This document shows, one piece after another, positions 5,929 through 38,992 of a stretch of DNA of 64,000 bases. This stretch comes from Prochlorococcus sp. AG-436-D21. Lineage in GTDB: Bacteria; Cyanobacteriota; Cyanobacteriia; PCC-6307; Cyanobiaceae. The notes under the pieces were generated by a model. It was not told the DNA's origin. It was given only the letters and a program-made list of their open reading frames with translations, and made no database searches. The stretch is taken from contig QCPF01000001.1 in the NCBI GenBank assembly GCA_003212655.1, positions 1 through 64,000 on the forward strand. Direction: 5' to 3'. Both the position numbers and the translations under genes were made by a program. Within the stretch, counting starts at the first letter, position 1, and every line of letters starts with the position of its first letter.

Positions 5929-6111
5929 ATGAATTACAGGGAAGATCTAGAAATCAAACTACAAAAAGTAACACTTGCAATGCAGGAAGTTGTAGATGAT
6001 ATCCATAAAACTGATCCTGAGAAGCAAAGAATAATTTCCAAGCTCATTGAATTTAAAGAAGCAATTATTTCAAAGGGAATTGAACTTAATATTGAACTAG
6101 AGGCAGCCTAG
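5929..6111 (+). CDS. Hypothetical small protein
   Basis: ORF track. Confidence 0.5.
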   Translation: MNYREDLEIKLQKVTLAMQEVVDDIHKTDPEKQRIISKLIEFKEAIISKGIELNIELEAA

Positions 6112-6184
6112 AATTATTGAATATCTCATGAATGTTTAATAACTTTTAGAATAATTTTATTAATAAAGAAGGGTTATTTATCAA

Positions 6185-6346
6185 ATGCAGCCTGGTACTT
6201 TTGAATTATTGATCCTAGTATTTATCTTTTTAGGTCTTCAAGCCTGGTGGATTATCCCAATAGTTTTTAAAAATAATAAATTAAATAAGAGAGGTAAGGA
6301 TTTAAGAGAAGAAATTAAGCAATTAGAAAAGTTATATAAAAAATAA
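6185..6346 (+). CDS. Small membrane protein, 53 aa
   Basis: MQPGTFELLILVFIFLGLQAWWIIPIVFKNNKLNKRGKDLREEIKQLEKLYKK. Confidence 0.6.
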   Translation: MQPGTFELLILVFIFLGLQAWWIIPIVFKNNKLNKRGKDLREEIKQLEKLYKK

Positions 6347-6380
6347 ATTAGTTATTATTTTTGCAAAATAACTATTATTA

Positions 6381-6821
6381 GTGAAAATCAAATATCTAAT
6401 GAAATTAAAAATAATTATTCCATTTTGCTTTCTTTTTATTGGGACTTTAGCTTTACCACAACCTTCTCTTGTTGAAGAAAAGATTGAAGTTATACCTATT
6501 ATTCAAAGTTCAAAAGGTCTTAGTGGTAAAAATTTTAATTATCTCGAGGGTAAGCCTGAATTAAGACTCTTAAAAGTAAAAATTCCAGTTGGGTTGAAAA
6601 CTCCAATTCATACTCATCCTTCCCCAATGTTGATTCATGTCACCAGAGGAAGATTAAAGCATGTGAGGGGTGAAGAAATTAATTTCTTTAAAGCGGGTGA
6701 TGCATTTATAGAGAGTAATAATGGGGCCCCACATTATGTGAAAAATGTTGGAAAGAAGCCGGCCATACTTCATGTGGGAGTTGTATCAGTAGTTGGAATG
6801 CCTACAGCCATAAATAAATAA
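6381..6821 (+). CDS. Secreted cupin-domain protein
   Basis: Signal peptide; PIHTHPSPMLIHVTRGRLK and GDAFIESNNGAPHYVKNVG. Confidence 0.85.
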   Translation: MKIKYLMKLKIIIPFCFLFIGTLALPQPSLVEEKIEVIPIIQSSKGLSGKNFNYLEGKPELRLLKVKIPVGLKTPIHTHPSPMLIHVTRGRLKHVRGEEINFFKAGDAFIESNNGAPHYVKNVGKKPAILHVGVVSVVGMPTAINK

Positions 6822-6863
6822 GATTTTTCTCAAAGTTGTTCTATCAGTATGAGGATTGAACTT

Positions 6864-8570
6864 TTATGAAGAACAACTGTAATGAGATACTCCTCCATAG
6901 TTAAAATACTGGCTTGGCTTTAGTCGATTATATTTTTGATCTATTTCTGGGGGTTGTTCTACATATGGATTGCTAAAGACATCCTGTAACTCTTTTATTT
7001 TTTTATAATTTCCCTTTTCAGCTTCTTCATATGCTGGAACGACCATCCATTCGCGCCAAGTATAGACTGGATTAAGGGATTTCATTGATGCCGATTTTGC
7101 TTTAATATTTCCCTCTTTCTTCAAGACTGATTGCCAGTTTTCAAGCCATACTTCCCACCTATTATTGAGCTCGTCATTAATTGGTAAATAGAAACAGTCT
7201 TCTAAAGAATCTAAGTTATCAGGTATTTCAGACAGTTTACGGAACAAAATTGTATAATCCGCTTTTGAAATGACCATGAGATTAAAAAATTCATTTATTA
7301 GAGTTTCGTTGTAATGTGCTAAACCAAGCTTGTTTGCCCACATTTTCATCAATTCGTTATTCATTAATTCAGAAAAGTCTTTTTCGATTTGACCTAACTT
7401 TTCTTGACCTTGTTTGCTTTGTGAAAGTAACGGACTAAGAGATGAACAGAATGTTTTAAAGTTGATTGCCGCTGCAGAAGGTTGGTTAAAAAATGAGAAA
7501 TGTTCACCTCCACCTGTCCATGGCTGAAATCTTGGATCAAATAATTCACAGAATCCAAAGGGGCCATAATCCAATGTATAACCTCCAGCAGCACAATTAT
7601 CACTATTGAAATTACCCTGGCAATAACCAACTCTCATCCAGTTGGCTATAAGTGATATAAGTCTTGATCTGTATAAAGAAGCCAGTTTTATTACTTTACT
7701 TTCAATTGAAATCTCATATTCAATTTCATCTTTATAATTTCTATCAATTAGATGTTGAACTATCATCTTTAGTTCATTGAGGGCCTCATCATGCGCATTA
7801 TTACGAACTCGTCTTGCAAAAAGTTCAATCTGGCCTACACGTAAAAAAGATGGAGCGACTCTTGTAGTAATTGCCGCTTGATTATCAATCATGATATCAG
7901 GTTCAAAATATCTGGATCCTTTTGAATACCACGGTCTTCTAACTATTTCTGAACGTGAGACATAAAGTGTTAAAGATCTTGAGGTAGGGATTTCCAAGGA
8001 ATCCATTAATTCCTGTGCGAGAAATTCTCGTACGCTAGACCTTAAGACAGCTCTGCCATCTGCTCCACGACAGTATGGAGTTGGACCTCCTCCTTTAAGT
8101 TGCATTTCCATTCTTTTCCCATTGAATAAACCTTCAAAAACAGAAATTGCCCTGCCATCACCATAACCATTGCCAGTTCCAAAGGGACATTGTTGGGTAT
8201 ATTCAGTTCCGTAAATTGATAATGCATAACCTGTTGCCCAACCAACAGGACTCATTGGATAATTAGCAACAGAAATATCACCTGAGAAAAAACGACAAAA
8301 ATTCTTGTCCTTAGTAAGGTCTGAGCTTAGCCTTAGTTCTTTAAAAAGTTTCTTGCTATGAGAAATATATTCTGGTTCTGGAATAGCAGTTGGAACAACT
8401 GGTACATAATGACCTGAATATACTGAACGCGGCTTATGATCATTTCCATCTTTTGTTGATTGAGGATCTGCTTTAAGAGAATTCATAAAAGAATAGTCAG
8501 ATAGTTGAGAAAATTCAGAAAAATTTTCTGTAAGCTTTACTTTTAATGAATCGGATTTGGTTGACATCAA
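6864..8570 (-). CDS. selO: SelO/YdiU (UPF0061) protein adenylyltransferase-like
   Basis: QLKGGGPTPYCRGADGRAVLRSSVREFLAQELMDSLEIPTSRSL; GNFNSDNCAAGGYTLDYGPFGF. Confidence 0.93.
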   Translation of the reverse strand: MMSTKSDSLKVKLTENFSEFSQLSDYSFMNSLKADPQSTKDGNDHKPRSVYSGHYVPVVPTAIPEPEYISHSKKLFKELRLSSDLTKDKNFCRFFSGDISVANYPMSPVGWATGYALSIYGTEYTQQCPFGTGNGYGDGRAISVFEGLFNGKRMEMQLKGGGPTPYCRGADGRAVLRSSVREFLAQELMDSLEIPTSRSLTLYVSRSEIVRRPWYSKGSRYFEPDIMIDNQAAITTRVAPSFLRVGQIELFARRVRNNAHDEALNELKMIVQHLIDRNYKDEIEYEISIESKVIKLASLYRSRLISLIANWMRVGYCQGNFNSDNCAAGGYTLDYGPFGFCELFDPRFQPWTGGGEHFSFFNQPSAAAINFKTFCSSLSPLLSQSKQGQEKLGQIEKDFSELMNNELMKMWANKLGLAHYNETLINEFFNLMVISKADYTILFRKLSEIPDNLDSLEDCFYLPINDELNNRWEVWLENWQSVLKKEGNIKAKSASMKSLNPVYTWREWMVVPAYEEAEKGNYKKIKELQDVFSNPYVEQPPEIDQKYNRLKPSQYFNYGGVSHYSCSS

Positions 8571-8902
8571 ATTTGTTATCTATTCTTTGAGGCGCTCTAA
8601 TTTCTTTAAATTAAACACCTAAATGTATCTTATATAGATTCTATTAGGGATGTTTTTTGGCGATACGTTTGAGATTAAATATAAGTTAAAAGTTAATACT
8701 TAATTAAAAAAAATGGATCCGAGGTAAGACATTTTTATGGAAAAAATTTTTTGGCTTTTAAAAAATAAAAAGAACTTCTCCAATATATTAATTTTTAAAC
8801 AATAACCACTGCAAATATTTATACATTCAAGATCTTTCTTAGATTGCTTTTAAATAATTTGAAAAAAGTTTCAAAATTTAATTTGTTGATCGACTTATAC
8901 CA

Positions 8903-8912
8903 CCCCCCCCCC
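8903..8912. repeat. C10 homopolymer
   Basis: tataccaccccccccccttattt, 10 consecutive C in AT-rich context. Confidence 0.9.
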
Positions 8913-8945
8913 TTATTTCCGCACTATATTTCTTGTAAAAATTTT

Positions 8946-10289
8946 CTAACTTACCCATCCTTTCAGCAAATCAAATACACTAATAAATAGTCCAAAACCA
9001 ATAATTGGAGGGGCAACCCATCTTGTCATGAATTTCAAATAACGTGTCGTTTTGATTCCAACTTTTGAATCACTAAGTTCTTCATTAAATTTTCCAGGTA
9101 CTACCCATCCCATAAAGAAAGTAACCAAGAATCCACCAAAGATCAGTAATACGCCACCAAAAATCGAATCAACTGTTCCAAGAATATTTAAATTTAATGC
9201 AGAAGGAATGCCTGCTAAGAATAGGAAAAGAGTTATCAACCAAACCGATTTTTCTCTTTTAAAGCCGAATTTATCCATTAATGAGGAAACTGGAACCTCC
9301 AATAATGAAACAGATGAAGTTATGGCTGCGATATAAGCTAGTGCAAAAAATGCAACAGCTACAATTCTTCCTGCTGCACCATATGATCCTAGACCTGTTG
9401 GAATTGAGATGAATAAAGCACCAACAGTGGATTCAGAAATGGCGTCACTTAAACCGAATGTTAAAACTATTGGAAAAGTTATAAATCCAGCCATTAGTCC
9501 AACCAAAGTATCTAATGATGCAACTCCAACACTTAGTTTTGGAAGATTACTTTTTTTATTTAAATAGGATGCGTAGGTAACCATAATTCCAATCCCTAAG
9601 CTTAATGAAAAGAATGCTTGTGTAAAAGCGTTTCTTATTGTTTGAGGATTTCTCAATTCATTAAAATCAAACTTAAGTAGAAATGTTTTATATCCTTCCC
9701 ATGCTCCTGAAAGTGAAGTAGCCCAAATAGCAAGAATCACAATAATTATGAAAAGGATTGGCATGAAATATCTAGTAACCTTTTCTATACCTTTTTTTAT
9801 ACCTGATGAGACTATTATTGCTGTAAGTACAAGACTTAATAGGTGGCCCAACAAAACACTGCTGCCGCTACTAATCGAGCCAAAGAAGGTTTCTGCTTCA
9901 GTTAAATTCTTTGGTAATCCAAAAAATAAAGAATGGAACAAGGTATCTGCAGTCCATCCCATTATCACTGAATAATATGATGCTATTCCTAAAGGAGCTA
10001 TAAAGAAAAGAATTCCTAATGGATACCAATTCTTCCCTGCCAGCTTTACAGGAGCAAGCAATGTGCTTGCCATTGCGTTTCTCCCTAGAGCCATTTCAGC
10101 AACAAATACCGGAAGACATACAATTAAAACGATCAATATATATAAAAGTACAAACGCCGCACCTCCACCCTGAGATGCTCTGTAAGCAAAACCCCAAAGG
10201 TTGCCTAGACCTACTGCACTACCAGCAGCTGCGAGAATGAATCCTAGCTTACTAGTCCATTGTTCTCTCTGAGAAATTTTTGAGTCCAA
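8946..10289 (-). CDS. Neurotransmitter:sodium symporter (NSS/SNF family)
   Basis: WTSKLGFILAAAGSAVGLGNLWGFAYRASQGGGAAF, multi-TM. Confidence 0.95.
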   Translation of the reverse strand: MDSKISQREQWTSKLGFILAAAGSAVGLGNLWGFAYRASQGGGAAFVLLYILIVLIVCLPVFVAEMALGRNAMASTLLAPVKLAGKNWYPLGILFFIAPLGIASYYSVIMGWTADTLFHSLFFGLPKNLTEAETFFGSISSGSSVLLGHLLSLVLTAIIVSSGIKKGIEKVTRYFMPILFIIIVILAIWATSLSGAWEGYKTFLLKFDFNELRNPQTIRNAFTQAFFSLSLGIGIMVTYASYLNKKSNLPKLSVGVASLDTLVGLMAGFITFPIVLTFGLSDAISESTVGALFISIPTGLGSYGAAGRIVAVAFFALAYIAAITSSVSLLEVPVSSLMDKFGFKREKSVWLITLFLFLAGIPSALNLNILGTVDSIFGGVLLIFGGFLVTFFMGWVVPGKFNEELSDSKVGIKTTRYLKFMTRWVAPPIIGFGLFISVFDLLKGWVS

Positions 10290-10422
10290 AATTAAAATCG
10301 TTTTTTATAGTTGATTTATAACTCATAAATGAAAATTAGTTAACACTTTGCTTAATAAAAACTAATTTTTTTAGATTAATTTTTGGATAAAGTTTTAGAA
10401 TTGAAAAACTTTAATTATTCTT

Positions 10423-10704
10423 ATGACTATTGAAACGACTATTTTAGATTTTCAACTAAGTAATACCTATGAGGAGTATGAATCACATATGAATGCAAAA
10501 GAACAGCAGACGATGTTTGAAGAAATGGGAGTTACAACATTTTATATTGGTAAATCATTAGATGATCCTCAAAGGGCTACTGTAATTTTTCAAGGACCAG
10601 AAAATGTTTTATATGATATTTTTATTAATCCTGAAACAAAACCTATAGTTGAAGCTTCAGGACATATTTATGAGGGTACTAAAATAACACGCTGGATTTC
10701 TTAA
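10423..10704 (+). CDS. DUF3764-like protein
   Basis: ORF track; ETTILDFQLSNTYEEYE... Confidence 0.6.
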   Translation: MTIETTILDFQLSNTYEEYESHMNAKEQQTMFEEMGVTTFYIGKSLDDPQRATVIFQGPENVLYDIFINPETKPIVEASGHIYEGTKITRWIS

Positions 10705-10719
10705 AAAAATAATTCTTTA

Positions 10720-11019
10720 ATGAATTACCAACTTTTAATTGAATCATATGCATTTGGTTCAGCCCTTTCTGAGCAAGAAATAGAACTCTTAAGTCTTGAA
10801 CTTGAAACTCAAATAATGAACATAAATATATCAACAGAATTTGGATGTTTTAAATCTGCTCCCTCTCATATTTGCGAAAGTCTTAATTTAAAAAAAGATA
10901 CTTATTGGATAATGTGTCTTGCTGAAATATTAGATTTACATAAGCCCCCACAATTTGGGAAAACGAAAAGTGTGGAGGTTTTCGATTTACTTCTTGAAAG
11001 AGGACTTGTTATTGGCTAA
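10720..11019 (+). CDS. Hypothetical protein, apparent paralog of 5102..5392
   Basis: KSAPSHICESLNLKKDTYWIMCLAEILD. Confidence 0.65.
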   Translation: MNYQLLIESYAFGSALSEQEIELLSLELETQIMNINISTEFGCFKSAPSHICESLNLKKDTYWIMCLAEILDLHKPPQFGKTKSVEVFDLLLERGLVIG

Positions 11020-11075
11020 TTAATTATTTATTTGATTATTAAAAATGAATTCTTTTTTTCTTTAGGCTGATAGGA

Positions 11076-11456
11076 TTGTTTTTGGTCAGCAAAAAAAGAA
11101 TGGAAGATTCTGGTGAATTGATATTGGGAAATATTATTAAGCTAACCCGATCAAGTGAAAAGAAATTTAAACTTGGAAACTTTAAAGGAGCTTTAGACGA
11201 CAAAATTAAAGCTAATGAGATATTGAAATCTAAATCTTGTGATGAAAAAATTATTGAAAAATATAGAGAAGAATTATCTAGTTTGTACTTTTCAAAATTC
11301 GATCTTATATTTGATCATAAGCTTAAAATTGATGAAATAAAGAGAATTGAAATAGTACAAATGTTGGAACGTAAAAGTGAAGAAAAATTAAAAAAGCATG
11401 ATTACAGAGGAGCAATAAAAGCATTAAGAAGGGCAGAAAAATACATATCAAATTAA
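11076..11456 (+). CDS. Hypothetical helical protein (TPR-like)
   Basis: Repeated KLGNFKGALDDKIKANEIL / KHDYRGAIKALRRAEKYI. Confidence 0.55.
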   Translation: MFLVSKKRMEDSGELILGNIIKLTRSSEKKFKLGNFKGALDDKIKANEILKSKSCDEKIIEKYREELSSLYFSKFDLIFDHKLKIDEIKRIEIVQMLERKSEEKLKKHDYRGAIKALRRAEKYISN

Positions 11457-23784: not shown

Positions 23785-24153
23785 TTAACTAACCGTTGTT
23801 ATTGAACTGCTTAATCCATAAGTGAGAAAAATAAAACTTGCAAAAGCAACTCCAATCATTACTGTTGTGTAAAGTTTATTTAGTTTGAAATTATTACTTA
23901 CAGATGAAAAGTCAGCAATAACCAAATTTTTCATTGAATATTTATCTCTATTTATGAAATTGTTGCTCTTAACTAGATTGCCTAAAATTGGATCTTTTGA
24001 AATAGTTGTTTCTTGATTGATAAAAGAATTTAAACCTTTATCTTCGTTAAAGAATCTTGGGAACATGTATGCATGCCATAAAGCTATTATTGCAACCCAA
24101 AAAACTACAGTAATTCCTGCAAAACCAAAAAGTAAGAATCTAAAGGTTTCCAT
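23785..24153 (-). CDS. Hypothetical membrane protein
   Basis: ORF track; N- and C-terminal TM helices. Confidence 0.6.
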   Translation of the reverse strand: METFRFLLFGFAGITVVFWVAIIALWHAYMFPRFFNEDKGLNSFINQETTISKDPILGNLVKSNNFINRDKYSMKNLVIADFSSVSNNFKLNKLYTTVMIGVAFASFIFLTYGLSSSITTVS

Positions 24154-24371
24154 AATTTTTTTTATTAATTAAAATCTACATCAAAAAAAACACATAAATA
24201 TTGCAATTCAAAAAATATACCTTAAATAAATCAATTAATCATTGCATGATGTTACTAATGATTAGAAACAATGTTATTAGGAGTTTCTCTTTAAATATAA
24301 CTTAATGATCAAATCATTTATTTAATTTAAAAAGACAAAATAATAAACAAATTTATTATTACTTTTTAGAA

Positions 24372-24668
24372 ATGGATTTCAGGATTTTACTTGTTATTAC
24401 ACCAATAATATTCTCATGGATATTCACAGTTTTTTGGTTAGGTAGGTGGGATGTATTTAGATTAACACCACTAGGATTACCAAAGAGCGGAGTAGCTCCT
24501 TTTAAAAATTATCAAGTATGGGAAGATTCAGCATTAGTTCCTGATTCTGGCAGATCTGCAGAAGGTTATCCAGTATTTACTGTAAGAACTGCGGCTGTTA
24601 ATGCCCTTGGGATTCCAACGGTTTTCTTCCTTGGAGCAATTTTGGCAATGCAGTTTAAATCTTATTAA
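24372..24668 (+). CDS. Hypothetical small membrane protein, 98 aa
   Basis: [29 protein letters not shown]...[25 protein letters not shown]. Confidence 0.75.
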
Positions 24669-24680
24669 TAGGAATTATTA

Positions 24681-24866
24681 ATGGACATTAGATTTTTAAT
24701 TGTTGGAGCACCATTTTTAATTTCATTTTTTTATACATTATTTTGGCTAAAAAAATGGGGTGCTTTTAATTCTCCGAATAATAATTTGCCAAAAAAAATT
24801 TCTCTTAAAAATGAATCAATAGTAGAAAGTTATATTTTAGAGGATATCTTTTTAACAAAAAATTAA
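24681..24866 (+). CDS. Paralogous small membrane protein (truncated form of 24372..24668)
   Basis: MDIRFLIVGAPFLISFFYTLFWLKKWGAF aligns to the N-terminus of the upstream ORF. Confidence 0.6.
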   Translation: MDIRFLIVGAPFLISFFYTLFWLKKWGAFNSPNNNLPKKISLKNESIVESYILEDIFLTKN

Positions 24867-24901
24867 TCAAATTTTTCTTCCCCCTTAATTAAAGCCTTGT
24901 C

Positions 24902-25000
24902 ATGATTCCCATAGAACAGTATTTATTTTTTGCAATTTCTCTTTATGCATTTTTTTATCTTTCAATGACAATTGTAAATAATTTTATTCGCTTTTCATAA
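24902..25000 (+). CDS. Small membrane protein, 32 aa
   Basis: MIPIEQYLFFAISLYAFFYLSMTIVNNFIRFS. Confidence 0.4.
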   Translation: MIPIEQYLFFAISLYAFFYLSMTIVNNFIRFS

Positions 25001-25083
25001 ACAATAATTTCATAAAATATTAAACACTTATTTGTATAAAATTAAGCTTCCTGTTTTTAAAATCTTATTATATAAATATATAA

Positions 25084-25200
25084 GTAGATATTAGGGGAAT
25101 CTACTAACCGCTAGCTTTGATAAAGCGGTTCGTAATGAGAACCTCCCTTTGACCTCATTTTCTTTTTCGCAATCTTAGAAAATGAGGTTTAAAAAAATTT
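25084..25200 (+). ncRNA. Candidate structured sRNA, tandem copy 1
   Basis: GTAGAT-attagggga-ATCTAC hairpin; AACCGCT...AGCGGTT hairpin; CCTCATTTTC...GAAAATGAGG terminator; TATAAATA just upstream. Confidence 0.55.
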
Positions 25201-25315
25201 TTATTCAGAAAAAATAAAATTTAATTTTCTACAAAAATTCGAACCATTAAATATTATTCATGGTTATGTATATTATTTACTTTTTAAAAAAGTGTTTTTT
25301 ATTTATAAATAATAT

Positions 25316-25435
25316 GTAGATATTTGGCGAATCTGCAACGGTATAGATTCCGTCTTTATGAACCTAGCCAGCGCAAATATTCTTAACTACGTTTTAGTTA
25401 TTTTAGTAGTTGAGAATATTTTTATTTTAAGGTTA
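25316..25435 (+). ncRNA. Candidate structured sRNA, tandem copy 2
   Basis: GTAGAT-atttggcga-ATCTGC hairpin; ACGG...CCGT hairpin; AATATTCT..AACTAC...GTAGTTGAGAATATT terminator; TATAAAT just upstream. Confidence 0.55.
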
Positions 25436-25453
25436 ATTTTTTCTTAAAACTAA

Positions 25454-25867
25454 ATGATCAATAAATCACGAAAAGTATCCTCATTAGAAAATATCTACAA
25501 GAACTTGGAATCTGGAATGCCAGCGAATAAATCTATTAAAGACTATTCTCTCCCTAATGCGAGACAGTGGTTAGGTGGAAGATATGTAGCCCTTTGGGTA
25601 TTACCTATTTATTTAATTAGAAAAATTGCAAAAATTGCAGCTTCCTCTGCATTTATAAAACCATATTCGCCAAATAAAAATGGACTTGCTTATAAAAGAC
25701 CAGAAACTTTGTACACCTCTTTAAAAGGTGTTTTTAAAGGAGAAGATCATTTAAGATTTTTTGATCATAGGTTTATCGCTATTTGGGTATTGCCTATTGC
25801 TTTGACTGGAATTGTTTTTGAATTACTTTTTATATCTCCTACTAAGAATATTTTCCCCTTCAATTAA
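25454..25867 (+). CDS. Hypothetical membrane protein with internal duplication
   Basis: GGRYVALWVLPIYLI and DHRFIAIWVLPIALT. Confidence 0.6.
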   Translation: MINKSRKVSSLENIYKNLESGMPANKSIKDYSLPNARQWLGGRYVALWVLPIYLIRKIAKIAASSAFIKPYSPNKNGLAYKRPETLYTSLKGVFKGEDHLRFFDHRFIAIWVLPIALTGIVFELLFISPTKNIFPFN

Positions 25868-26720: not shown

Positions 26721-28475
26721 TTGACTCTTAAAGAACATCTCACTCAGATATCAAATGTTCTCGTGATTGGCTGCGGTGGGGCTGGTTTAAGATCTGCTAT
26801 TGAAATTAAAAAATCTGGTCTCGATGTATGTATTCTAGGAAAGAGACCGAAGACAGATGCTCATACCGTCTTAGCAGCAGGAGGCATTAATGCTGCTTTA
26901 GGCAACTTAGATAAAGAAGACTCATGGGAACAGCATTTTATTGATACTTATTTAGAGGGTTATGGCATTGGTGATCCTTTAAAAGTTGAAATAATGGCTA
27001 AAGAATCACCATCACTAGTAAAAGAAATTGATAAATGGGGGGCTAATTTTGCAAAATTAAAAAATGGTGAACTCGATCAAAGATTTTTTGGTGCGCACAA
27101 ATATCGCAGAACTTGTTATTCAGGTGATTTTACTGGATTATCAATTTTAAAAACTCTCTTAAAAAAATCAGATGATTTAAAGATTCCTATTTACGACAAT
27201 CAATATGTAACTGAATTATTGATTAGGGAAAATACATGCTTTGGAGCAATGTCATTTAATTTGTCTACTTCAGAGAGGACTGTGCACTTTGCAGATGCAG
27301 TTATTTTATGTACAGGAGGGCACACAAGATTATGGAAAAAAAGTTCATCAAGAAAAAATGAAAACACAGGTGATGGTTATTATTTAAGTCTAAAAGGAGG
27401 TTGTGAACTAATAGATATGGAAATGGTACAATTCCACCCTTCTGGAATGGTTTTGCCCGAAGAAATTGAGGGAACTTTGGTTACAGAAGCGGTAAGAGGT
27501 GAGGGTGGAAAGTTAATAAATAATAAAGGCGAGAGATTTATGAAACAATATGATCCGAAAAGGATGGAATTATCTACAAGAGATAGAGTAGCAATTGCTA
27601 ACTACACAGAAATAATTGAAGGCAGAGGAACAAAAAATGGGGGCGTTTTTCTTGATATAAGCCATAAAAGTAAAGAGTTCATTATTGAAAAACTGCCAAC
27701 CATATATAGACAATTTCTTGAAGCCCAAATGCTTGATATTTCAAAATCACCAATGGAAGTTGCACCAACTGCCCACTATTCAATGGGTGGAATTTTAGTT
27801 AATCCTGAGGATTTATCCACTTCTGTGGAGGGTCTATTTGCCGCTGGTGAAGTTGCAGGAGGACTTCATGGAGCTAATCGTTTAGGTGGTAATTCTTTGG
27901 CAGAAATTATTATTTTTGGGAGACGTGCTGGTATTGCAGCTTTAAAATATTCAAAAAATATAGATCAGCAAATTAGATCAAATAAAGCCATCGCCATTGC
28001 CCATGAAAATATTAATAAGTTTATTAAAAATGGTAATGAATTAGTGAGGCCTCTTCAAAATGAATTGCGATTAATAATGTGGAAATATTGTGGGGTGATT
28101 AAAAATGAGACATTACTTTTAGAGGGGTTATCAAAAATTGAAAGTATCAAAACAAAACTTAGTGATGTTGATGTAAGAATCGATCAATACAATTGCGAAG
28201 ATCTAGCATTAATCTTTGATTTACAATCTTCTTTGTTAAGTGCAAAAGCGACAATTGTTTCTGCATTACAAAGAAATGAAAGTAGGGGCGCACATCAAAG
28301 AAGTGATTACCCATTACTTGACCCCTTATTTCAATTTAATTGTGTAGTAAGCATGGATGATGATAATAATTTAAAAATCTCTAAAATACCTCTAAAAGAA
28401 TTAAGTAAGGAACAAAAAATAATTGTTAAAAATGCTAAAAGAGAAGAGGATATCAGAAATAAACTGCTTGAATAA
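26721..28475 (+). CDS. Succinate dehydrogenase/fumarate reductase flavoprotein-like (SdhA/FrdA family)
   Basis: VLVIGCGGAGLRSAIEIKKSG, AHTVLAAGGINAALGN, HGANRLGGNSLAEIIIFGRRAG. Confidence 0.9.
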   Translation: MTLKEHLTQISNVLVIGCGGAGLRSAIEIKKSGLDVCILGKRPKTDAHTVLAAGGINAALGNLDKEDSWEQHFIDTYLEGYGIGDPLKVEIMAKESPSLVKEIDKWGANFAKLKNGELDQRFFGAHKYRRTCYSGDFTGLSILKTLLKKSDDLKIPIYDNQYVTELLIRENTCFGAMSFNLSTSERTVHFADAVILCTGGHTRLWKKSSSRKNENTGDGYYLSLKGGCELIDMEMVQFHPSGMVLPEEIEGTLVTEAVRGEGGKLINNKGERFMKQYDPKRMELSTRDRVAIANYTEIIEGRGTKNGGVFLDISHKSKEFIIEKLPTIYRQFLEAQMLDISKSPMEVAPTAHYSMGGILVNPEDLSTSVEGLFAAGEVAGGLHGANRLGGNSLAEIIIFGRRAGIAALKYSKNIDQQIRSNKAIAIAHENINKFIKNGNELVRPLQNELRLIMWKYCGVIKNETLLLEGLSKIESIKTKLSDVDVRIDQYNCEDLALIFDLQSSLLSAKATIVSALQRNESRGAHQRSDYPLLDPLFQFNCVVSMDDDNNLKISKIPLKELSKEQKIIVKNAKREEDIRNKLLE

Positions 28476-28596
28476 TATGGATATTTAAAACTAAATAAAT
28501 GATTAATTACGTTCGTTAAGAAAATTTAAATTAATAAAAAATAAATTCTTGACCACTTTTCGACTACTTTTTGGGATAAGTAGCCCTAGCTCTTTT

Positions 28597-29631: not shown

Positions 29632-29685
29632 TCGGGGCGACAGGATTCGAACCTACGACCTAATTCTCGCAATGCACTAGGGAGG
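29632..29685 (-). repeat. Degenerate tRNA-Pro 3'-end remnant (att-like core B)
   Basis: tcggggcgacaggattcgaacctacgaccta... with the tRNA-Pro terminator-like flank retained at 29581..29630. Confidence 0.85.
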
Positions 29686-29801
29686 TTTTTTAAGAGATTT
29701 CCAAGAACTATTGATATTACTGATTAAATATCTAATAGTTAATCATTTTTAAACAGAAAAAACAATACTAATATTGTTTGAAATAGTATGATATCAGTCG
29801 G

Positions 29802-29837
29802 GAGGGGCTCTGTGAGGGGCTCTGTGAGGGGCTCTTC
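29802..29837. repeat. 12-bp tandem repeat x3
   Basis: GAGGGGCTCTGT GAGGGGCTCTGT GAGGGGCTCTTC. Confidence 0.95.
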
Positions 29838-29852
29838 TGATTTGATAGATAT

Positions 29853-30170
29853 TTAGTTAATTATTTTTTTAATTTTTTCTAAATTCCATTTATCAAATAT
29901 TAATTTCATTTCTCTTTCGTAATATCTTACTTTCTTTGCGAAAGGTAGTTGTTGAATAATTATCCCAAAAGGAAATTTAAAAAAAGAAGAAACATAAACA
30001 ATATAAAACTCGACAAATGAAGGTTTTGGTGGGAGAGTTAAATTTTTTATATATGCCCAATCAATGCAAGGTTTTAGTTGCTTATCACTAGCGATAATAT
30101 TTTTTTTACATCTCCACCAAGAGAATAAATAAATGCAAATAAAAATTGGTAACGGAAGAAGTCGCAACAT
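29853..30170 (-). CDS. Hypothetical membrane-associated protein
   Basis: ORF track. Confidence 0.5.
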   Translation of the reverse strand: MLRLLPLPIFICIYLFSWWRCKKNIIASDKQLKPCIDWAYIKNLTLPPKPSFVEFYIVYVSSFFKFPFGIIIQQLPFAKKVRYYEREMKLIFDKWNLEKIKKIIN

Positions 30171-30276
30171 TAAATAATAAAGATTATTTTTCTTCTTATT
30201 TATTCTATAAATAATATTTGATTTTTATTTGCAATACGTTTCTATATATATAGAAGTTTTTAAGGGATTAACGATT

Positions 30277-30477
30277 ATGGAAATTCCAGACGAAATGTTG
30301 AAAGAAATTCGAGAAAGTGGATACGATCAAGAGCTTGTATATAACTACATAAGAGAACTATTAAACAGCGATAAACAAATTAAAGAAAATTACAATCTAG
30401 AGCTTATAGACAATTACTTATTAGATAAAAGATTTATGAGAGAGCTTGAAGATAGGAATGAATATGATGCTGCTTAA
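30277..30477 (+). CDS. Hypothetical small acidic protein (start at MEIPDEM)
   Basis: ORF track 30229..30477, trimmed. Confidence 0.5.
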   Translation: MEIPDEMLKEIRESGYDQELVYNYIRELLNSDKQIKENYNLELIDNYLLDKRFMRELEDRNEYDAA

Positions 30478-30493
30478 AAATAATTTTTAAATC

Positions 30494-30619
30494 ATGCAAG
30501 ATCGAAAAACTATAGCTATCTCCGAGATAGTAAAAATAATTGAAGAGTGCAGATATAATGATGAGCTTGCTGAGGTTTATAAGAGGGAGATATTAGACCA
30601 GGAGAAAGTATATGACTAG
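30494..30619 (+). CDS. Hypothetical small protein, 41 aa
   Basis: MQDRKTIAISEIVKIIEECRYNDELAEVYKREILDQEKVYD. Confidence 0.45.
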   Translation: MQDRKTIAISEIVKIIEECRYNDELAEVYKREILDQEKVYD

Positions 30620-30742
30620 AGGGGCAAAATGAGTCCAATAGGTGCAAGTAATAGCAAGCTATGGCTCAGTAGGGGATACTAAAGGGGGCAAATCTTGTAT
30701 TAAGATGAATAGTGAATATCTCAAACTCACTGCAATAACTAA

Positions 30743-30784
30743 TCGGGGCGACAGGATTCGAACCTGCGACCTAGTGCTCCCAAA
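30743..30784 (-). repeat. tRNA-Pro 3'-end remnant (att-like core C), 42 bp
   Basis: tcggggcgacaggattcgaacctgcgacctagtgctcccaaa identical to the functional tRNA. Confidence 0.93.
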
Positions 30785-30985
30785 TCACTAGCTCAAAAGA
30801 CCCTATAACTACGATTTGAAACTATAACTAAAGTTATAAGCCCTTTTTTCTACTAAAACCTTATAAGACTTTCTAATACTTAATGGATTTTTCCCTAAAT
30901 TTTCCCTAAAGTTGACCTAGTGCCACATAAGGTTTTAAAAGACGCCACAAACTAATAAAAGCGTTGGCAAGTAGTAAGCGTTTCA

Positions 30986-31570
30986 TTAATTACAGATAGG
31001 CTTCTTTTTCCAAACAGTAGAATCGCAATTAACATTTCCTTTTTTCTTATTGGTAGTTTTTTCCATGAAATCAATTATTGGGGGATTGCTATAAGGATTC
31101 AAACCTTTATCTCTTCCCCATGTATCTTGAGGTCCTTGGCTATTAGGTAAACGATAGTTTGGTATTGGTTGAGCTATCTGCTTTTTCCATCTAAAGAAAG
31201 CCTTCATGAAATCTTGTTGAGCATTTCTATTTATGAAAATAAATAAAGCTTGTCTGAGTTGTCCAGATTTACTTTCATACGTTATGTAGTTGTAGTAATC
31301 TCGATGACTTATTGCACTGCCTTCGGCATCATATCTATAGGATTTAAATTGTGAAAGTTCAATACCTCCGTAACCCTCTACCCACATTGCGGTCCCTTGA
31401 AAACGAACTCTACATCTATTCTTCAACGATCTACATGCAGCATCGTGATAACTTTTTGGTCCATCATCAAACATTTCAATAGGAAAATCAGCATCTCCAA
31501 AATCAGCGAAAACAGGATTTATTGGACAAAAAAGGCCCATTAAAAGAACTAGGAAAAATTTAATTCTCAT
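30986..31570 (-). CDS. Hypothetical secreted protein, 194 aa
   Basis: Signal peptide MRIKFFLVLLMGLFCPINPVFA. Confidence 0.7.
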   Translation of the reverse strand: MRIKFFLVLLMGLFCPINPVFADFGDADFPIEMFDDGPKSYHDAACRSLKNRCRVRFQGTAMWVEGYGGIELSQFKSYRYDAEGSAISHRDYYNYITYESKSGQLRQALFIFINRNAQQDFMKAFFRWKKQIAQPIPNYRLPNSQGPQDTWGRDKGLNPYSNPPIIDFMEKTTNKKKGNVNCDSTVWKKKPICN

Positions 31571-31803
31571 TATTTACCAAAAAAGCATTCAAATCCTCTC
31601 CTCTCATTTGATCGATATAGTCTTTCACTACTAACATACAGTGCTCCTGCCTCCTCACATTGTTCCATATTTTCCATGGGCATAACAGCGAAACCAGGAG
31701 TTGCCAAATACCCATCTCTAACTAAGAGGTAAACATTTCCCGCATAACTAGCTGTAGGTAAGGCAAGAGCAGCTAATAAGGGTATTAAAAATCTCTTTCT
31801 CAT
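31570..31803 (-). CDS. Hypothetical secreted protein, 77 aa
   Basis: Signal peptide MRKRFLIPLLAALALPTASYA; overlaps next ORF. Confidence 0.65.
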   Translation of the reverse strand: MRKRFLIPLLAALALPTASYAGNVYLLVRDGYLATPGFAVMPMENMEQCEEAGALYVSSERLYRSNERRGFECFFGK

Positions 31804-31844
31804 AAAAAAAGGAGCTAATTGCCCCTTATTTTAGATCGACTGTC
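31804..31844. repeat. Dispersed repeat copy 2
   Basis: Matches 29491..29532. Confidence 0.85.
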
Positions 31845-32039
31845 AATTATTAATTAATAGGCATCTACTAATAAGGATTACAACCAGTTCTATCAATCAA
31901 TATAAGGTAATCTTATATCCTAAAAAATTTAATAAAATTCTATAAAGTCTAGGGAAAAACCATAAGAAAACCCCCTAAAAAGGAGGTCATTTTCCCTAAT
32001 TTTTCCCTAAGTCAAATTAGGCAATCGCTGAAAAGCCAG

Positions 32040-32085
32040 TCGGGGCGACAGGATTCGAACCTGCGACCTAGTGCTCCCAAAGCAC
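32040..32085 (-). repeat. tRNA-Pro 3'-end remnant (att-like core D), 46 bp
   Basis: tcggggcgacaggattcgaacctgcgacctagtgctcccaaagcac identical to the functional tRNA. Confidence 0.95.
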
Positions 32086-32205
32086 TTAACAACCCAAGTA
32101 GGGCACAATGTCTACAAGCTATGACTGAATAGTTGAGGGTTTTGCTTAGCTTGTTATGACAAACTAATTGACGATTGACGGCATATTGACGGCTATTTGA
32201 ATTAG

Positions 32206-33585
32206 TTAATTGAATTTGTTGCCACAAGAGTTTAGCTTCATTTCTAAGCTATCTAACCCACCAGGCCTTCTAACTTTAAGTTGTTGCATTATATCAACTA
32301 TTGAAACAGCAAAATTTAAGCCTTCGCTCGAGGTTTGACCAAATGTATTTACTCCAATAACTTCTCCATTCTCGTTTAAAAGAGGTCCTCCACTATTACC
32401 TGGATTTATTGCAGCATCAGTTTGAATTAATGCAGAGCCACTCATGACAATGGAATCAAAGTCACTTCCTGATCTTCTCAAGGCGCTAACAATTCCCCTA
32501 GTAACTGTGTTTGACAAACCAAGAGGAGAGCCTAATGCAACCACATCTTCTCCGGCCATTGGATAATTTGAATAACAGATAGGCAAGGCTTTTGGAAGAT
32601 CAGTGCCATTTACAGCAATGATTGCAAAATCATCTTCTCTACTTATATAAGATACCTTTCCCTTATATTGTCTCCCTGAAACAGTATCAATAAGAATTTC
32701 TTTATTGGTTGCTCCGCTAACAACATGCCTATTAGTAAGTAAAGTACCTTCGTCGGTAATGAAAAACCCAGTTCCTTGACCACTTCCGGCTCTTACAGTA
32801 ACCACACTGGGAAGTGAGCTTCCTGCTATTTCTTTAATAGATGGATTCTTTTTAATGTTTTTTATGTTTATGGCAATCTTTGGTAGATCCCATTTTTTAA
32901 TTGATTTTTTATAAAGAAGAGATAGTTTTTCAACAGTTTCTTCTCCTATCGGAACAACAGTACGTCTTACTCTTATTGATAATCCATCATAGGTTTTTGC
33001 GTTTTTGATATCATTCACGAATCTACTAGGAAGCATAAATTTGCCATCATCGCCATACAGAGAGTAAGTTTTTCCAGCAAATTTAACTTCTAAAGGAGAA
33101 GGTAAATCTCCACCATCTGTCTCATATCCTGCACTGCAAGCTATGAGACCGCAACCTGCTTTTAAAGTCCAAATTCCTCTTACATAATCTGATGACCACT
33201 TTGTAAAAACGGTGGATTCATATGGATAACTAAATTTATAATTCCGATCATAAACAACATACTCAGTAGTCCCATCAAAACCTGATGTAGCTTTAACTAT
33301 CTGACCATAAGGAACTCTGTTTCTTCTTGGAATTCTGTTCCATAATATGTCACTTTCCATTTCGACAACAGCAAGGCCCGTGTCAGGGTCAATTAGTTCT
33401 TTTCTTTTGGGACGTCCATCTTTATCAACACAATCCTTATGTTTACCTCTATGAACTGGAGATTCACAATTAATTTTCGCTGCAAATGCACTTTCTGATA
33501 AAGGGGAGAAGGTGGATAGACCAAAGAAGCTCCCAAAAGAAATTATTGAGATTATAAATTTTTTAAAACGCATTAATAAAAACAT
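32206..33585 (-). CDS. Secreted trypsin-like (S1C/HtrA-type) serine protease without evident PDZ domain
   Basis: LLTNRHVV, REDDFAII, NPGNSGGPLLNENGEVIGVNTF; protein ends shortly after the protease domain; extended N-terminal region. Confidence 0.88.
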   Translation of the reverse strand: MFLLMRFKKFIISIISFGSFFGLSTFSPLSESAFAAKINCESPVHRGKHKDCVDKDGRPKRKELIDPDTGLAVVEMESDILWNRIPRRNRVPYGQIVKATSGFDGTTEYVVYDRNYKFSYPYESTVFTKWSSDYVRGIWTLKAGCGLIACSAGYETDGGDLPSPLEVKFAGKTYSLYGDDGKFMLPSRFVNDIKNAKTYDGLSIRVRRTVVPIGEETVEKLSLLYKKSIKKWDLPKIAINIKNIKKNPSIKEIAGSSLPSVVTVRAGSGQGTGFFITDEGTLLTNRHVVSGATNKEILIDTVSGRQYKGKVSYISREDDFAIIAVNGTDLPKALPICYSNYPMAGEDVVALGSPLGLSNTVTRGIVSALRRSGSDFDSIVMSGSALIQTDAAINPGNSGGPLLNENGEVIGVNTFGQTSSEGLNFAVSIVDIMQQLKVRRPGGLDSLEMKLNSCGNKFN

Positions 33586-33689
33586 CGTTGATAAATAATA
33601 ATTTGATTGTCATATGATTTCTACCTTTTTAAAAATAGTTTTAATAAAAAATTGTTTTGACGGCATTTTGACGGCTTTCTCTGCCGTCA

Positions 33690-33740
33690 GATTTTCCAAT
33701 AAAAAAGCGAGTCTGGGAAACTCGCTAGTATAACTTGGTT
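33690..33740 (-). terminator. tRNA-Pro terminator
   Basis: Minus strand GCGAGT-ttcccag-ACTCGC-TTTTTT. Confidence 0.7.
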
Positions 33741-33748
33741 TTTAAGAG

Positions 33749-33822
33749 TCGGGGCGACAGGATTCGAACCTGCGACCTAGTGCTCCCAAAGCACCCGCGC
33801 TACCAAGCTGCGCCACGCCCCG
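33749..33822 (-). tRNA. tRNA-Pro(UGG)
   Basis: CGGGGCG acceptor, TGG anticodon, GGTTCGAATCC T-loop. Confidence 0.97.
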
Positions 33823-34502: not shown

Positions 34503-34660
34503 TAATTATTTAGTTAGGTAAAACTATGAGATTTGTAATGAATATTTCAAGTATCTGATTGTATAACTTTAGAAAGTGGCACAAATTTTTCAAAAATGTA
34601 GCGGTTAATACTTGATTTTGTATATCAAAATACACTATCTTAAAGTGTCCTTTAAATTTC

Positions 34661-34669
34661 GTGTGAGGA
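34661..34669 (+). promoter_or_regulatory. Yfr1-complementary site in porin 1 leader
   Basis: GTGTGAGGA, complementary to the UCCUCACAC motif of Yfr1. Confidence 0.7.
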
Positions 34670-34674
34670 AATTT

Positions 34675-35775
34675 ATGAAGCTTTTTAAAAGCTTGCTAGT
34701 AGCACCAGCGACATTAGGCTTACTTGCCCCTTTGTCAGCTACTGCAACCGAAGTTACTATTAATGACTTCAACCCTGCTGAAGAACTTGCTATTACTAAC
34801 AGCCGTGTAGATGGTTTAGAAGCAAGACTTAATAATTTTGAAGCTGGCGGTTTCTCAGAAACAACAACTGCTTCTTTCAGTGTTGATGCTGCTATCGGAG
34901 CTATCGATGGTGATGAAACTTCTGAAGCAACTGTATTTGATTATCAGTTCAACATTGGTTTATCTACTAGTTTCACTGGAGAAGATTCTCTTGATGTAGC
35001 AATTGACAGTGGTTCTTCTTTTGCATCAACAAAAGATAATCCATTGGCATTTGATACAGGTGCTGGATTAAGCGTTGATGGAATTACTTATGCTTTCCCT
35101 GTTGGTGGATTGTCAATGGTTGTTGGTGTTGACACAGATCTAAGTACTGCATTTACAGGAGCTTGTTCATACAGCGCATTCACTGATTACATGGGTGATT
35201 GTGGTACTGGTAATTCTATCGGTTCTGTTGGTAACGGTGTAACAGCTGCTGGTAGTTATGCTTTTGATTCAGGATTCTCACTAGCTGGCGCTATCACATC
35301 TACTAATGATACTGATGCTGCAACTAAGGAAAAAGTTGGACTTTTAACAAAAGAAGGTTCTGACTCTTACGGTATTGAGGCTGCATATACTGCTGACTCA
35401 TGGGGTGTATCAGTTGCTTATGTATATGATGATAATGCTGCAGCTGCTGAGACAACAACTTGGGGAGTCAACGGTACTTACAGTTTTGATTTAGCAGACG
35501 TAAGTGTTGGTTATGAAACTGAAGAAACATCTGGAACAGATAAGTCTGGATACTTCGTTGGTGTAACTTTCCCTGAAGTTGGTCCTGGTTCTGTTAGCAT
35601 TGGTGCTGCAACAGTTGGTAACTACACTGATGCAGAAACAGAGTACTTGATGTATGAAGCATCTTACTCTTATCCAGTTAATGATGGCCTAACCATCACT
35701 CCTGGTGTTTACATCAAAGAAACAGATGGCGATGATCTAACAGGAGTTATCGTTAAATCTTCATTCTCTTTCTAA
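34675..35775 (+). CDS. Outer-membrane porin (Som-like), copy 1
   Basis: Signal peptide MKLFKSLLVAPATLGLLAPLS; beta-barrel-like repeats ending in F; start trimmed from track 34612. Confidence 0.88.
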   Translation: MKLFKSLLVAPATLGLLAPLSATATEVTINDFNPAEELAITNSRVDGLEARLNNFEAGGFSETTTASFSVDAAIGAIDGDETSEATVFDYQFNIGLSTSFTGEDSLDVAIDSGSSFASTKDNPLAFDTGAGLSVDGITYAFPVGGLSMVVGVDTDLSTAFTGACSYSAFTDYMGDCGTGNSIGSVGNGVTAAGSYAFDSGFSLAGAITSTNDTDAATKEKVGLLTKEGSDSYGIEAAYTADSWGVSVAYVYDDNAAAAETTTWGVNGTYSFDLADVSVGYETEETSGTDKSGYFVGVTFPEVGPGSVSIGAATVGNYTDAETEYLMYEASYSYPVNDGLTITPGVYIKETDGDDLTGVIVKSSFSF

Positions 35776-37749: not shown

Positions 37750-37839
37750 TAAAGTTAGCAATTTATATCCAGCTTTGATTTTGTCTACTGAGAGTTGTTA
37801 ATAGTCGGGATATACATTACCATTTGGTTACCTTAAATT

Positions 37840-37848
37840 GTGTGAGGA
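37840..37848 (+). promoter_or_regulatory. Yfr1-complementary site in porin 2 leader
   Basis: GTGTGAGGA 5 nt before ATG. Confidence 0.7.
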
Positions 37849-37852
37849 ATTT

Positions 37853-38992
37853 ATGAAGCTTTTTAAAAGCTTGCTAGTAGCACCTGCAACTTTAGGACTA
37901 TTAGCTCCATTATCTGTTTTTGCTGGTGAGGCCAGCTTAGATGATATTTCAAAATATTCTAGTTCAGAGAATATTGACTTTGCTAATGCATTCATAAATG
38001 AAGCATCTAGTAATACCCCTTTAATTGCTGGTGGAGAAGGTTTGGTTGATTCCAGTCCTGAAGGCGGTTTCTCAGAAACAACAACTGCTTCTTTCAGTGT
38101 TGATGCTGCTATCGGAGCTATCGATGGTGATGAAACTTCTGAAGCAACTGTATTTGATTATCAGTTCAACATTGGTTTATCTACTAGTTTCACTGGAGAA
38201 GATTCTCTTGATGTAGCAATTGACAGTGGTTCTTCTTTTGCATCAACAAAAGATAATCCATTGGCATTTGATACAGGTGCTGGATTAAGCGTTGATGGAA
38301 TTACTTATGCTTTCCCTGTTGGTGGATTGTCAATGGTTGTTGGTGTTGACACAGATCTAAGTACTGCATTTACAGGAGCTTGTTCATACAGCGCATTCAC
38401 TGATTACATGGGTGATTGTGGTACTGGTAATTCTATCGGTTCTGTTGGTAACGGTGTAACAGCTGCTGGTAGTTATGCTTTTGATTCAGGATTCTCACTA
38501 GCTGGCGCTATCACATCTACTAATGATACTGATGCTGCAACTAAGGAAAAAGTTGGACTTTTAACAAAAGAAGGTTCTGACTCTTACGGTATTGAGGCTG
38601 CATATACTGCTGACTCATGGGGTGTATCAGTTGCTTATGTATATGATGATAATGCTGCAGCTGCTGAGACAACAACTTGGGGAGTCAACGGTACTTACAG
38701 TTTTGATTTAGCAGACGTAAGTGTTGGTTATGAAACTGAAGAAACATCTGGAACAGATAAGTCTGGATACTTCGTTGGTGTAACTTTCCCTGAAGTTGGT
38801 CCTGGTTCTGTTAGCATTGGTGCTGCAACAGTTGGTAACTACACTGATGCAGAAACAGAGTACTTGATGTATGAAGCATCTTACTCTTATCCAGTTAATG
38901 ATGGCCTAACCATCACTCCTGGTGTTTACATCAAAGAAACAGATGGCGATGATCTAACAGGAGTTATCGTTAAATCTTCATTCTCTTTCTAA
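37853..38992 (+). CDS. Outer-membrane porin (Som-like), copy 2
   Basis: Same mature barrel as copy 1, different N-terminal region. Confidence 0.88.
   Translation: MKLFKSLLVAPATLGLLAPLSVFAGEASLDDISKYSSSENIDFANAFINEASSNTPLIAGGEGLVDSSPEGGFSETTTASFSVDAAIGAIDGDETSEATVFDYQFNIGLSTSFTGEDSLDVAIDSGSSFASTKDNPLAFDTGAGLSVDGITYAFPVGGLSMVVGVDTDLSTAFTGACSYSAFTDYMGDCGTGNSIGSVGNGVTAAGSYAFDSGFSLAGAITSTNDTDAATKEKVGLLTKEGSDSYGIEAAYTADSWGVSVAYVYDDNAAAAETTTWGVNGTYSFDLADVSVGYETEETSGTDKSGYFVGVTFPEVGPGSVSIGAATVGNYTDAETEYLMYEASYSYPVNDGLTITPGVYIKETDGDDLTGVIVKSSFSF

What the first reader, a model, noticed from the sequence alone, without database searches (positions are those of the whole stretch)
30889..32011. TTTTCCCTAAN 11-bp doublets just inside both ends of element C-D: candidate arm-type integrase sites
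At 30889..30910 there are two identical TTTTCCCTAAA units back to back. At 31990..32011 there is TTTTCCCTAAT TTTTCCCTAAG. The doublets sit about 105 bp inside core C and about 28 bp before core D, in the same orientation. An 11-bp period is about one DNA helical turn, as with contiguous arm sites of lambda-type integrases. Core plus subterminal phased arm repeats at both ends defines a minimal mobilisable unit without its own integrase. I know of no published description of this signature but cannot search.
Basis: partly seen in the sequence, partly recalled or inferred. Interest (0 to 1): 0.85.

Follow-up and report, generated by a model that had tools for sequence, protein, structure and literature searches.

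The report
Address-tagged mobile units at tRNA-Pro
The paired 11-bp repeats look like docking sites for a DNA-inserting enzyme at both ends of a small mobile unit that lacks that enzyme; in Prochlorococcus, rows of such units at one tRNA gene share the same insertion sequence, but each kind carries its own matching pair of docking sites, like an address label saying which enzyme can move it.

Summary
The arm-site reading is well supported and is one case of a general rule. In 227 core-bounded Prochlorococcus segments, period-11/12 doublets of the same sequence sit at both ends (57 and 15 exact matches; 2.5 and 0.6 expected; none at any other period from 6 to 30). About 31 different doublet sequences ("addresses") share one core. 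tRNA-Pro integrase genes start right at such a doublet, and doublet layout follows integrase clades (9 changes on the tree, 42 by shuffling). Integrase-less units carry the same addresses as integrase-coding ones (54 of 94; shuffled 3.9). The C-D unit has the geometry of one clade (left 118, right -56); full elements of that clade include satellites with a phage capsid gene. No integrase with exactly TTTTCCCTAA arms was found, and no excised circle. Best reading: C-D is an integrase-less, trans-mobilisable (CIME-like) unit addressed to one clade of tycheposon-type integrases. Binding and mobility are inferred.

The parts
30743..30788 (+). core C: copy of tRNA-Pro(TGG) 3' end, left boundary of the unit
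   Evidence: 42-bp exact match to the tRNA gene; 1 mismatch in 46
30889..30910 (+). left doublet TTTTCCCTAAA x2, period 11: candidate arm-type integrase sites (class T118)
   Evidence: same position after a core at 18 sites of the genus
30743..30991 (+). conserved left-end module of the TTTTCCC family (core, doublet and up to about 80 bp more)
   Evidence: blastn 73-91% identity in about 30 loci, most ending between 30941 and 31030
30986..31570 (-). cargo ORF, 194 aa, no Pfam or PHROG match; weak homologue (34%) in a unit with another address (TTTGACCAC)
31570..31803 (-). cargo ORF, 77 aa, no family
31851..32086 (+). conserved right-end module of the TTTTCCC family
   Evidence: blastn 74-93% identity in over 30 loci; end alignment
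31949..31958 (-). third, inverted copy TTTTCCCTAG of the arm unit
   Evidence: conserved in most TTTTCCC right ends
31969..31988 (-). terminator-like hairpin carried by the unit, placed to end a leftward tRNA transcript (inference)
   Evidence: z = -1.76, modest
31990..32011 (+). right doublet TTTTCCCTAAT TTTTCCCTAAG, period 11: candidate arm-type sites
   Evidence: same position before a core at 23 sites
32040..32085 (+). core D: right boundary of the unit and left boundary of the next
32174..32195 (+). left doublet ATTGACGGCAT ATTGACGGCTA of the neighbouring unit (class T105)
32206..33585 (-). cargo of the neighbouring unit: trypsin-like serine protease, 459 aa
   Evidence: PF13365, E = 2e-30
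33655..33676 (+). right doublet TTTTGACGGCA TTTTGACGGCT of the neighbouring unit; inverted copy TGCCGTCA at 33682-33689
33706..33726 (-). tRNA terminator hairpin
   Evidence: z = -4.45
33748..33822 (-). intact tRNA-Pro(TGG); its 3' end is the shared core
   Evidence: ARAGORN
29632..29677 (+). degenerate core (5 mismatches in 46), left boundary of a further unit 29632-30743
29802..29837 (+). GAGGGGCTCTGT repeat, period 12 (class T142 address), left end of the unit 29632-30743; its right end is degenerate
   Evidence: same address next to an integrase in L199

Best explanation
The doublets are arm-type binding sites of tyrosine integrases of the tycheposon kind, read by the integrase's N-terminal domain, while the tRNA-Pro 3' end is the core where strands are exchanged. 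The unit 30743-32085 is an integrase-less (CIME-like) element: it keeps both cores and both arm doublets, including a third inverted site, around exchangeable cargo. It would be excised or inserted only when an integrase that reads TTTTCCCTAA-type arms is supplied in trans, most likely from the T118 clade, several of whose full elements carry a phage capsid gene. Shown: sequence, geometry, matching at both ends, link of doublet layout and sequence to integrase clade, exchange of cargo, and (for the neighbouring unit) boundaries at the cores. Inferred: that the integrase binds the doublets, that it acts in trans, and that this unit is still mobile.
For: Same doublet at both ends in 57 (period 11) and 15 (period 12) of 227 unique core-bounded segments, against 2.5 and 0.6 with shuffled pairing; 0 at every other period from 6 to 30; interior windows 4 and 1 of 178. 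With mismatches allowed, 110 against 8.5 (max 14), 31 address groups. Fixed positions: left mostly 103-110, 117-120 or 140-149; right about -56, -79 or -100, with single addresses jumping by about 22 or 45 bp. Integrase ORFs begin at such doublets. Layout classes on a 63-integrase tree: 9 changes, shuffled mean 42, 0 of 200 as low; T118, T105, T142 and T214 are one change each. Doublet similarity tracks the N-terminal 75 residues after controlling for the catalytic part (partial 0.246, 0 of 999) but not the reverse (0.105, 72 of 999; 29 thinned sequences). 54 of 94 integrase-less units carry an address within 3 of 18 bases of an integrase-linked one (29 exact; shuffled 3.9). Integrase-coding T118 elements have the same geometry as the TTTTCCCTAA units. 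Terminal modules conserved, cargo not. Neighbour unit about 90% identical in G062 and G064, dropping to about 40% or less next to both cores.
Against: No integrase with exactly TTTTCCCTAA arms was seen among those fetched from 267 genus genomes; the nearest address (TTTTTCCCACG, L196/L198) differs at 4 of 18 bases. No attP-like junction of this family. The window's genome (72.6% complete) has no hit to the tRNA-Pro integrase profile. Pfam sees no arm-binding domain in four tRNA-Pro-type integrases; only L121's integrase has a sub-threshold PF13356 match. Of 28 segments with an integrase, 12 lack a matching direct doublet at both ends, partly because one clade uses an inverted pair instead. Many segments are decayed.
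Confidence: 0.85

Rival explanations
1. The units are dead remains: the ends are decayed att sites, and present shuffling is by ordinary homologous recombination between cores and end modules.
For: About half of the segments lack matching ends; hybrids with different left and right doublets occur, e.g. L012 11430-13694; no attP junction found; no helper in the window's genome.
Against: Doublets and distances are conserved while cargo changes, which selection on att function explains; the neighbour unit has breaks at the cores; the same addresses exist with intact integrases.
Confidence: 0.2
2. The doublets are operators or regulator boxes (Pho-box-like 11-bp repeats, or autoregulation of the integrase promoter) rather than recombination arms.
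For: Period 11 with an 8-bp unit resembles response-regulator boxes (own knowledge); in full elements the left doublet lies at the integrase start.
Against: Present at both ends, also in units without an integrase; distance is fixed to the core, not to a gene; about 31 sequences matched within a unit. Autoregulation in addition to arm function is not excluded.
Confidence: 0.05
3. The doublets bind another element protein (excisionase or replication initiator; iteron-like).
For: Short phased direct repeats are also typical of Xis and iteron sites (own knowledge); a full T118 element has an excisionase-like gene.
Against: Layout and sequence track the integrase tree and its N-terminal part; doublets lie at both ends close to the core.
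Confidence: 0.08
4. Common host repeat or terminator element.
For: A terminator-like hairpin lies next to the right doublet.
Against: 41 of 50 genus sites are at fixed core distances; the terminator is a separate feature; with up to 1 mismatch the doublet is found in no other genus of the family among 301 genomes.
Confidence: 0.01

Closest known systems
Tycheposons of Prochlorococcus (Hackl et al. 2023, from memory; described as ref. [quoted passage not shown]
   Same: tRNA 3'-end target, tyrosine recombinase at one end, cargo and satellite forms; the integrase-coding elements found here fit
   Different: The unit of the finding has no integrase and is 1.3 kb; the arm-address rule was not found in the papers searched, but the founding paper is not in the library
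CIME (cis-mobilisable element) and accretion arrays (PMC5704250)
   Same: Lost integration genes, kept att sites, tandem arrays at one gene end
   Different: Here units of about 31 arm addresses share one core, and many addresses also exist with their own integrase, which would sort helpers from units
ssrA island arrays of Dehalococcoides (PMC3146451)
   Same: Over a dozen direct repeats of an RNA-gene 3' end; islands with and without an integration module
   Different: Serine recombinase there; tyrosine recombinases with arm doublets here
Lambda-type arm sites (PMC4880445) and arm-binding-domain recombinases (PMC8138268)
   Same: Arm sites near the core on both sides; N-terminal domain is the likely reader
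   Different: Extreme diversification of arm sequence over a single shared core; integrase-less units keep them
Integron cassettes / CALINs (PMC11389934)
   Same: Arrays of integrase-less, exchangeable cargo units mobilised in trans
   Different: Boundaries are tRNA 3'-end copies; specificity would lie in arm sites, not in the cassette recombination site

Membership tests
Arm-type sites of tyrosine integrases | Repeated sites on both sides of the core, at distances that allow bridging | tested here: met
Arm-type sites of tyrosine integrases | Site sequence co-varies with the integrase, its N-terminal domain in particular | tested here: met
Arm-type sites of tyrosine integrases | Integrase has a recognisable arm-binding domain | tested here: inconclusive
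   No Pfam match in four tRNA-Pro-type integrases; sub-threshold PF13356 in L121's
Arm-type sites of tyrosine integrases | Integrase binds the sites | not testable with these tools
   needs EMSA or footprinting
CIME | No integrase in the unit | tested here: met
   only two small cargo ORFs of unknown family
CIME | attL and attR retained | tested here: met
   cores and doublets at both ends
CIME | Mobilised by a related element | not testable with these tools
   inferred only
Tycheposon | Own tyrosine recombinase | tested here: not met
   absent from 30743-32085, so the unit is not filed as a full tycheposon
Tycheposon | tRNA 3'-end integration site | tested here: met
Integron cassette | attC-type foldable site and IntI | not tested
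   boundaries are tRNA 3'-end copies; attC not searched for

The most novel reading that the evidence does not exclude
Prochlorococcus and related genera use an address code: one shared tRNA core fixes where units go, and about 31 or more arm addresses decide which integrase may move which unit, so that many helper-unit sets coexist in one array without cross-talk, and cargo changes its helper when end modules are exchanged.
Probability: 0.5. Interest if true: 0.88.

Novelty: new variant of a known kind. Interest (0 to 1): 0.8.

Why it matters
It offers a sequence rule that cuts tRNA islands of one of the most abundant photosynthetic organisms into units with defined ends, predicts which integrase could move each unit, and gives a directly testable account of how island genes move in genomes that often hold few or no matching integrases.

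Tried and rejected
IMG/VR scans for the doublet failed three times for lack of an answer from the machine, so viral contigs are untested. attP-like junction search for this family: nothing in 267 genomes. Terminator and host-motif explanations rejected by position data. The conserved 389-aa recombinase found in nearly all 24 genomes searched was considered as the single mover: it has no 11/12-bp direct doublet with the island layout and no tRNA in the three wider loci examined, and one enzyme would hardly read 31 addresses. tRNA-Thr integrases of the 321-aa type showed no such doublets near the tRNA, so the rule is not universal.

Full report
OBSERVATION. They sit inside two exact 42-bp copies of the 3' end of tRNA-Pro(TGG), whose intact gene is at 33748-33822. 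A third, inverted copy at 31949-31958 and a terminator-like hairpin at 31969-31988 belong to the right end.

SPREAD. A search of 267 same-genus genomes found the doublet (up to 2 mismatches) in 35, often as a left form (11th base A) and a right form (11th base T) 0.6-1.2 kb apart. In the loci fetched, 41 of 50 genus sites lie 52-60 bp before a tRNA-Pro core or 112-122 bp after one. Single hits in four genomes of other families of the class have no core nearby and look like chance; with up to 1 mismatch none was found outside the genus in 301 family genomes.

GENERAL RULE. tRNA-Pro cores occur in many copies per genome. Reading the flanks of 17 cores showed a different 11-bp doublet for most units, the same at both ends. 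This was tested on 156 segments and then on 227 unique ones: exact 8-mer doublets with period 11 matched at both ends in 57 (2.5 expected from shuffled pairing, max 7) and with period 12 in 15 (0.6, max 4); every other period from 6 to 30 gave none, and segment interiors had almost none. With mismatches, 110 of 227 match (8.5 by shuffling, max 14), in 31 address groups. The segments are not independent, since some are copies of one element, but counting address groups alone leaves 31 matched cases. Left doublets stand mostly at about 103-110, 117-120 or 140-149 bp from the core, right ones at about -56, -79 or -100. Single addresses use two right positions about 22 or 45 bp apart (AGCTACCC -100/-78; CTCGCTCA -101/-55; TAATCGCT -103/-57), that is about two or four helical turns, which fits phased protein bridging (inference).

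INTEGRASES. A profile of seven integrases from these islands found relatives across the genus and in 25 of 29 genera sampled in the order. In elements with a tRNA-Pro core the integrase ORF starts at the left doublet. On a tree of 63 integrases the layout classes need 9 changes (42 when shuffled; T118, T105, T142 and T214 one each); a clade of 20 uses an inverted pair such as TCCACGGANNTCCGTGGA or a degenerate form of it. Doublet similarity is explained by the N-terminal 75 residues beyond the catalytic part, not the reverse, in the thinned set; in the unthinned set and within T118 both parts contribute. Full T118 elements (3.8-11.6 kb in the set) have left 117-120 and mostly right -56, the geometry of the TTTTCCCTAA units. 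One of them (L198) encodes an HK97-type capsid/protease, a ligase domain, an AAA protein and an excisionase-like protein, so it looks like a phage satellite. 54 of 94 integrase-less units have an address within 3 of 18 bases of an integrase-linked one, 29 exactly, against 3.9 for shuffled units. TTTTCCCTAA itself has no exact partner: the nearest is TTTTTCCCACG (L196, L198; 4 of 18 differ), in the expected class. The same architecture at another tRNA (tRNA-Ser, L121) has core, period-12 doublets at both ends and an integrase, and another genus (L245) shows core, doublets and integrase at tRNA-Pro.

MOBILITY EVIDENCE. For TTTTCCC units the end modules (about 200-250 bp each) are conserved at 73-93% in tens of loci, whereas the cargo of C-D has no nucleotide match over 170 bp in the fetched loci; a distant homologue of its 194-aa ORF sits in a unit with another address, and several cargo families occur under more than one address. 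The neighbouring unit 32040-33794 is about 90% identical in two other genomes and identity collapses next to both cores. No attP junction of the TTTTCCC family was found.

MECHANISM. Best reading: the integrase N-terminal domain docks on the doublets, its core-binding and catalytic parts act on the tRNA core, and units without an integrase are moved by integrases that share their address. Shown are anatomy, matching, clade association and cargo exchange. Not shown are binding, trans action and present mobility. Rivals (dead remains; regulatory boxes; excisionase or replication sites) are weighed in their sections; that this particular unit is no longer mobile remains quite possible.

KNOWN OR NEW. 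Arm sites, CIMEs, accretion arrays and tycheposons are known (PMC4880445, PMC5704250, PMC3146451, PMC10872708). A diversified arm-address code over one shared core, kept by integrase-less units, was not found in five literature searches, but the tycheposon paper itself is not held, so priority is uncertain. Rated a new variant of a known kind.

Noticed in passing
L121 (G029:C12) about 6048-11448: A tRNA-Ser(gct) element of about 5.4 kb with a short core copy at both ends, TCCCAACAACAT doublets (period 12) at both ends, a third direct copy, and an integrase just inside the left doublet.
   Followed up: partly
L054, L168 and similar T142/T148 elements: A second recombinase of about 190-225 aa, apparently the catalytic domain only, occurs inside elements of four addresses.
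   Followed up: no
L118, L129, L130 and others (about 389 aa): A conserved tyrosine recombinase is present in nearly all 24 genomes searched; no tRNA in the three wider loci examined. It may be domesticated.
   Followed up: partly
window 23785-25867: These small membrane-protein genes recur elsewhere as cargo of TTTGTCCGC/TTTGACCGC units, but no tRNA-Pro core is detectable near them here: possibly cargo fixed after loss of its cores.
   Followed up: partly
window 28401-28571: The 3' end of the FAD-binding (sdhA/frdA-like) gene plus a TTGACCAC-like repeat matches, at 90%, sequence near a unit end in L041.
   Followed up: no
window 34612-35775 and 37838-38992: Two porin-like genes share a long identical C-terminal part; gene conversion, recent duplication or an assembly effect.
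   Followed up: no
L012 2077-13695: Hybrid units: the left end of one address with the right end of another, in a reciprocal pair (TTTTCCC and TTTTGACGG), suggesting exchange between units.
   Followed up: partly
L175 and L176 (G097:C1): Two integrase matches with the same score and length lie 200 kb apart in one complete genome, which may be a recent copy of one element.
   Followed up: no
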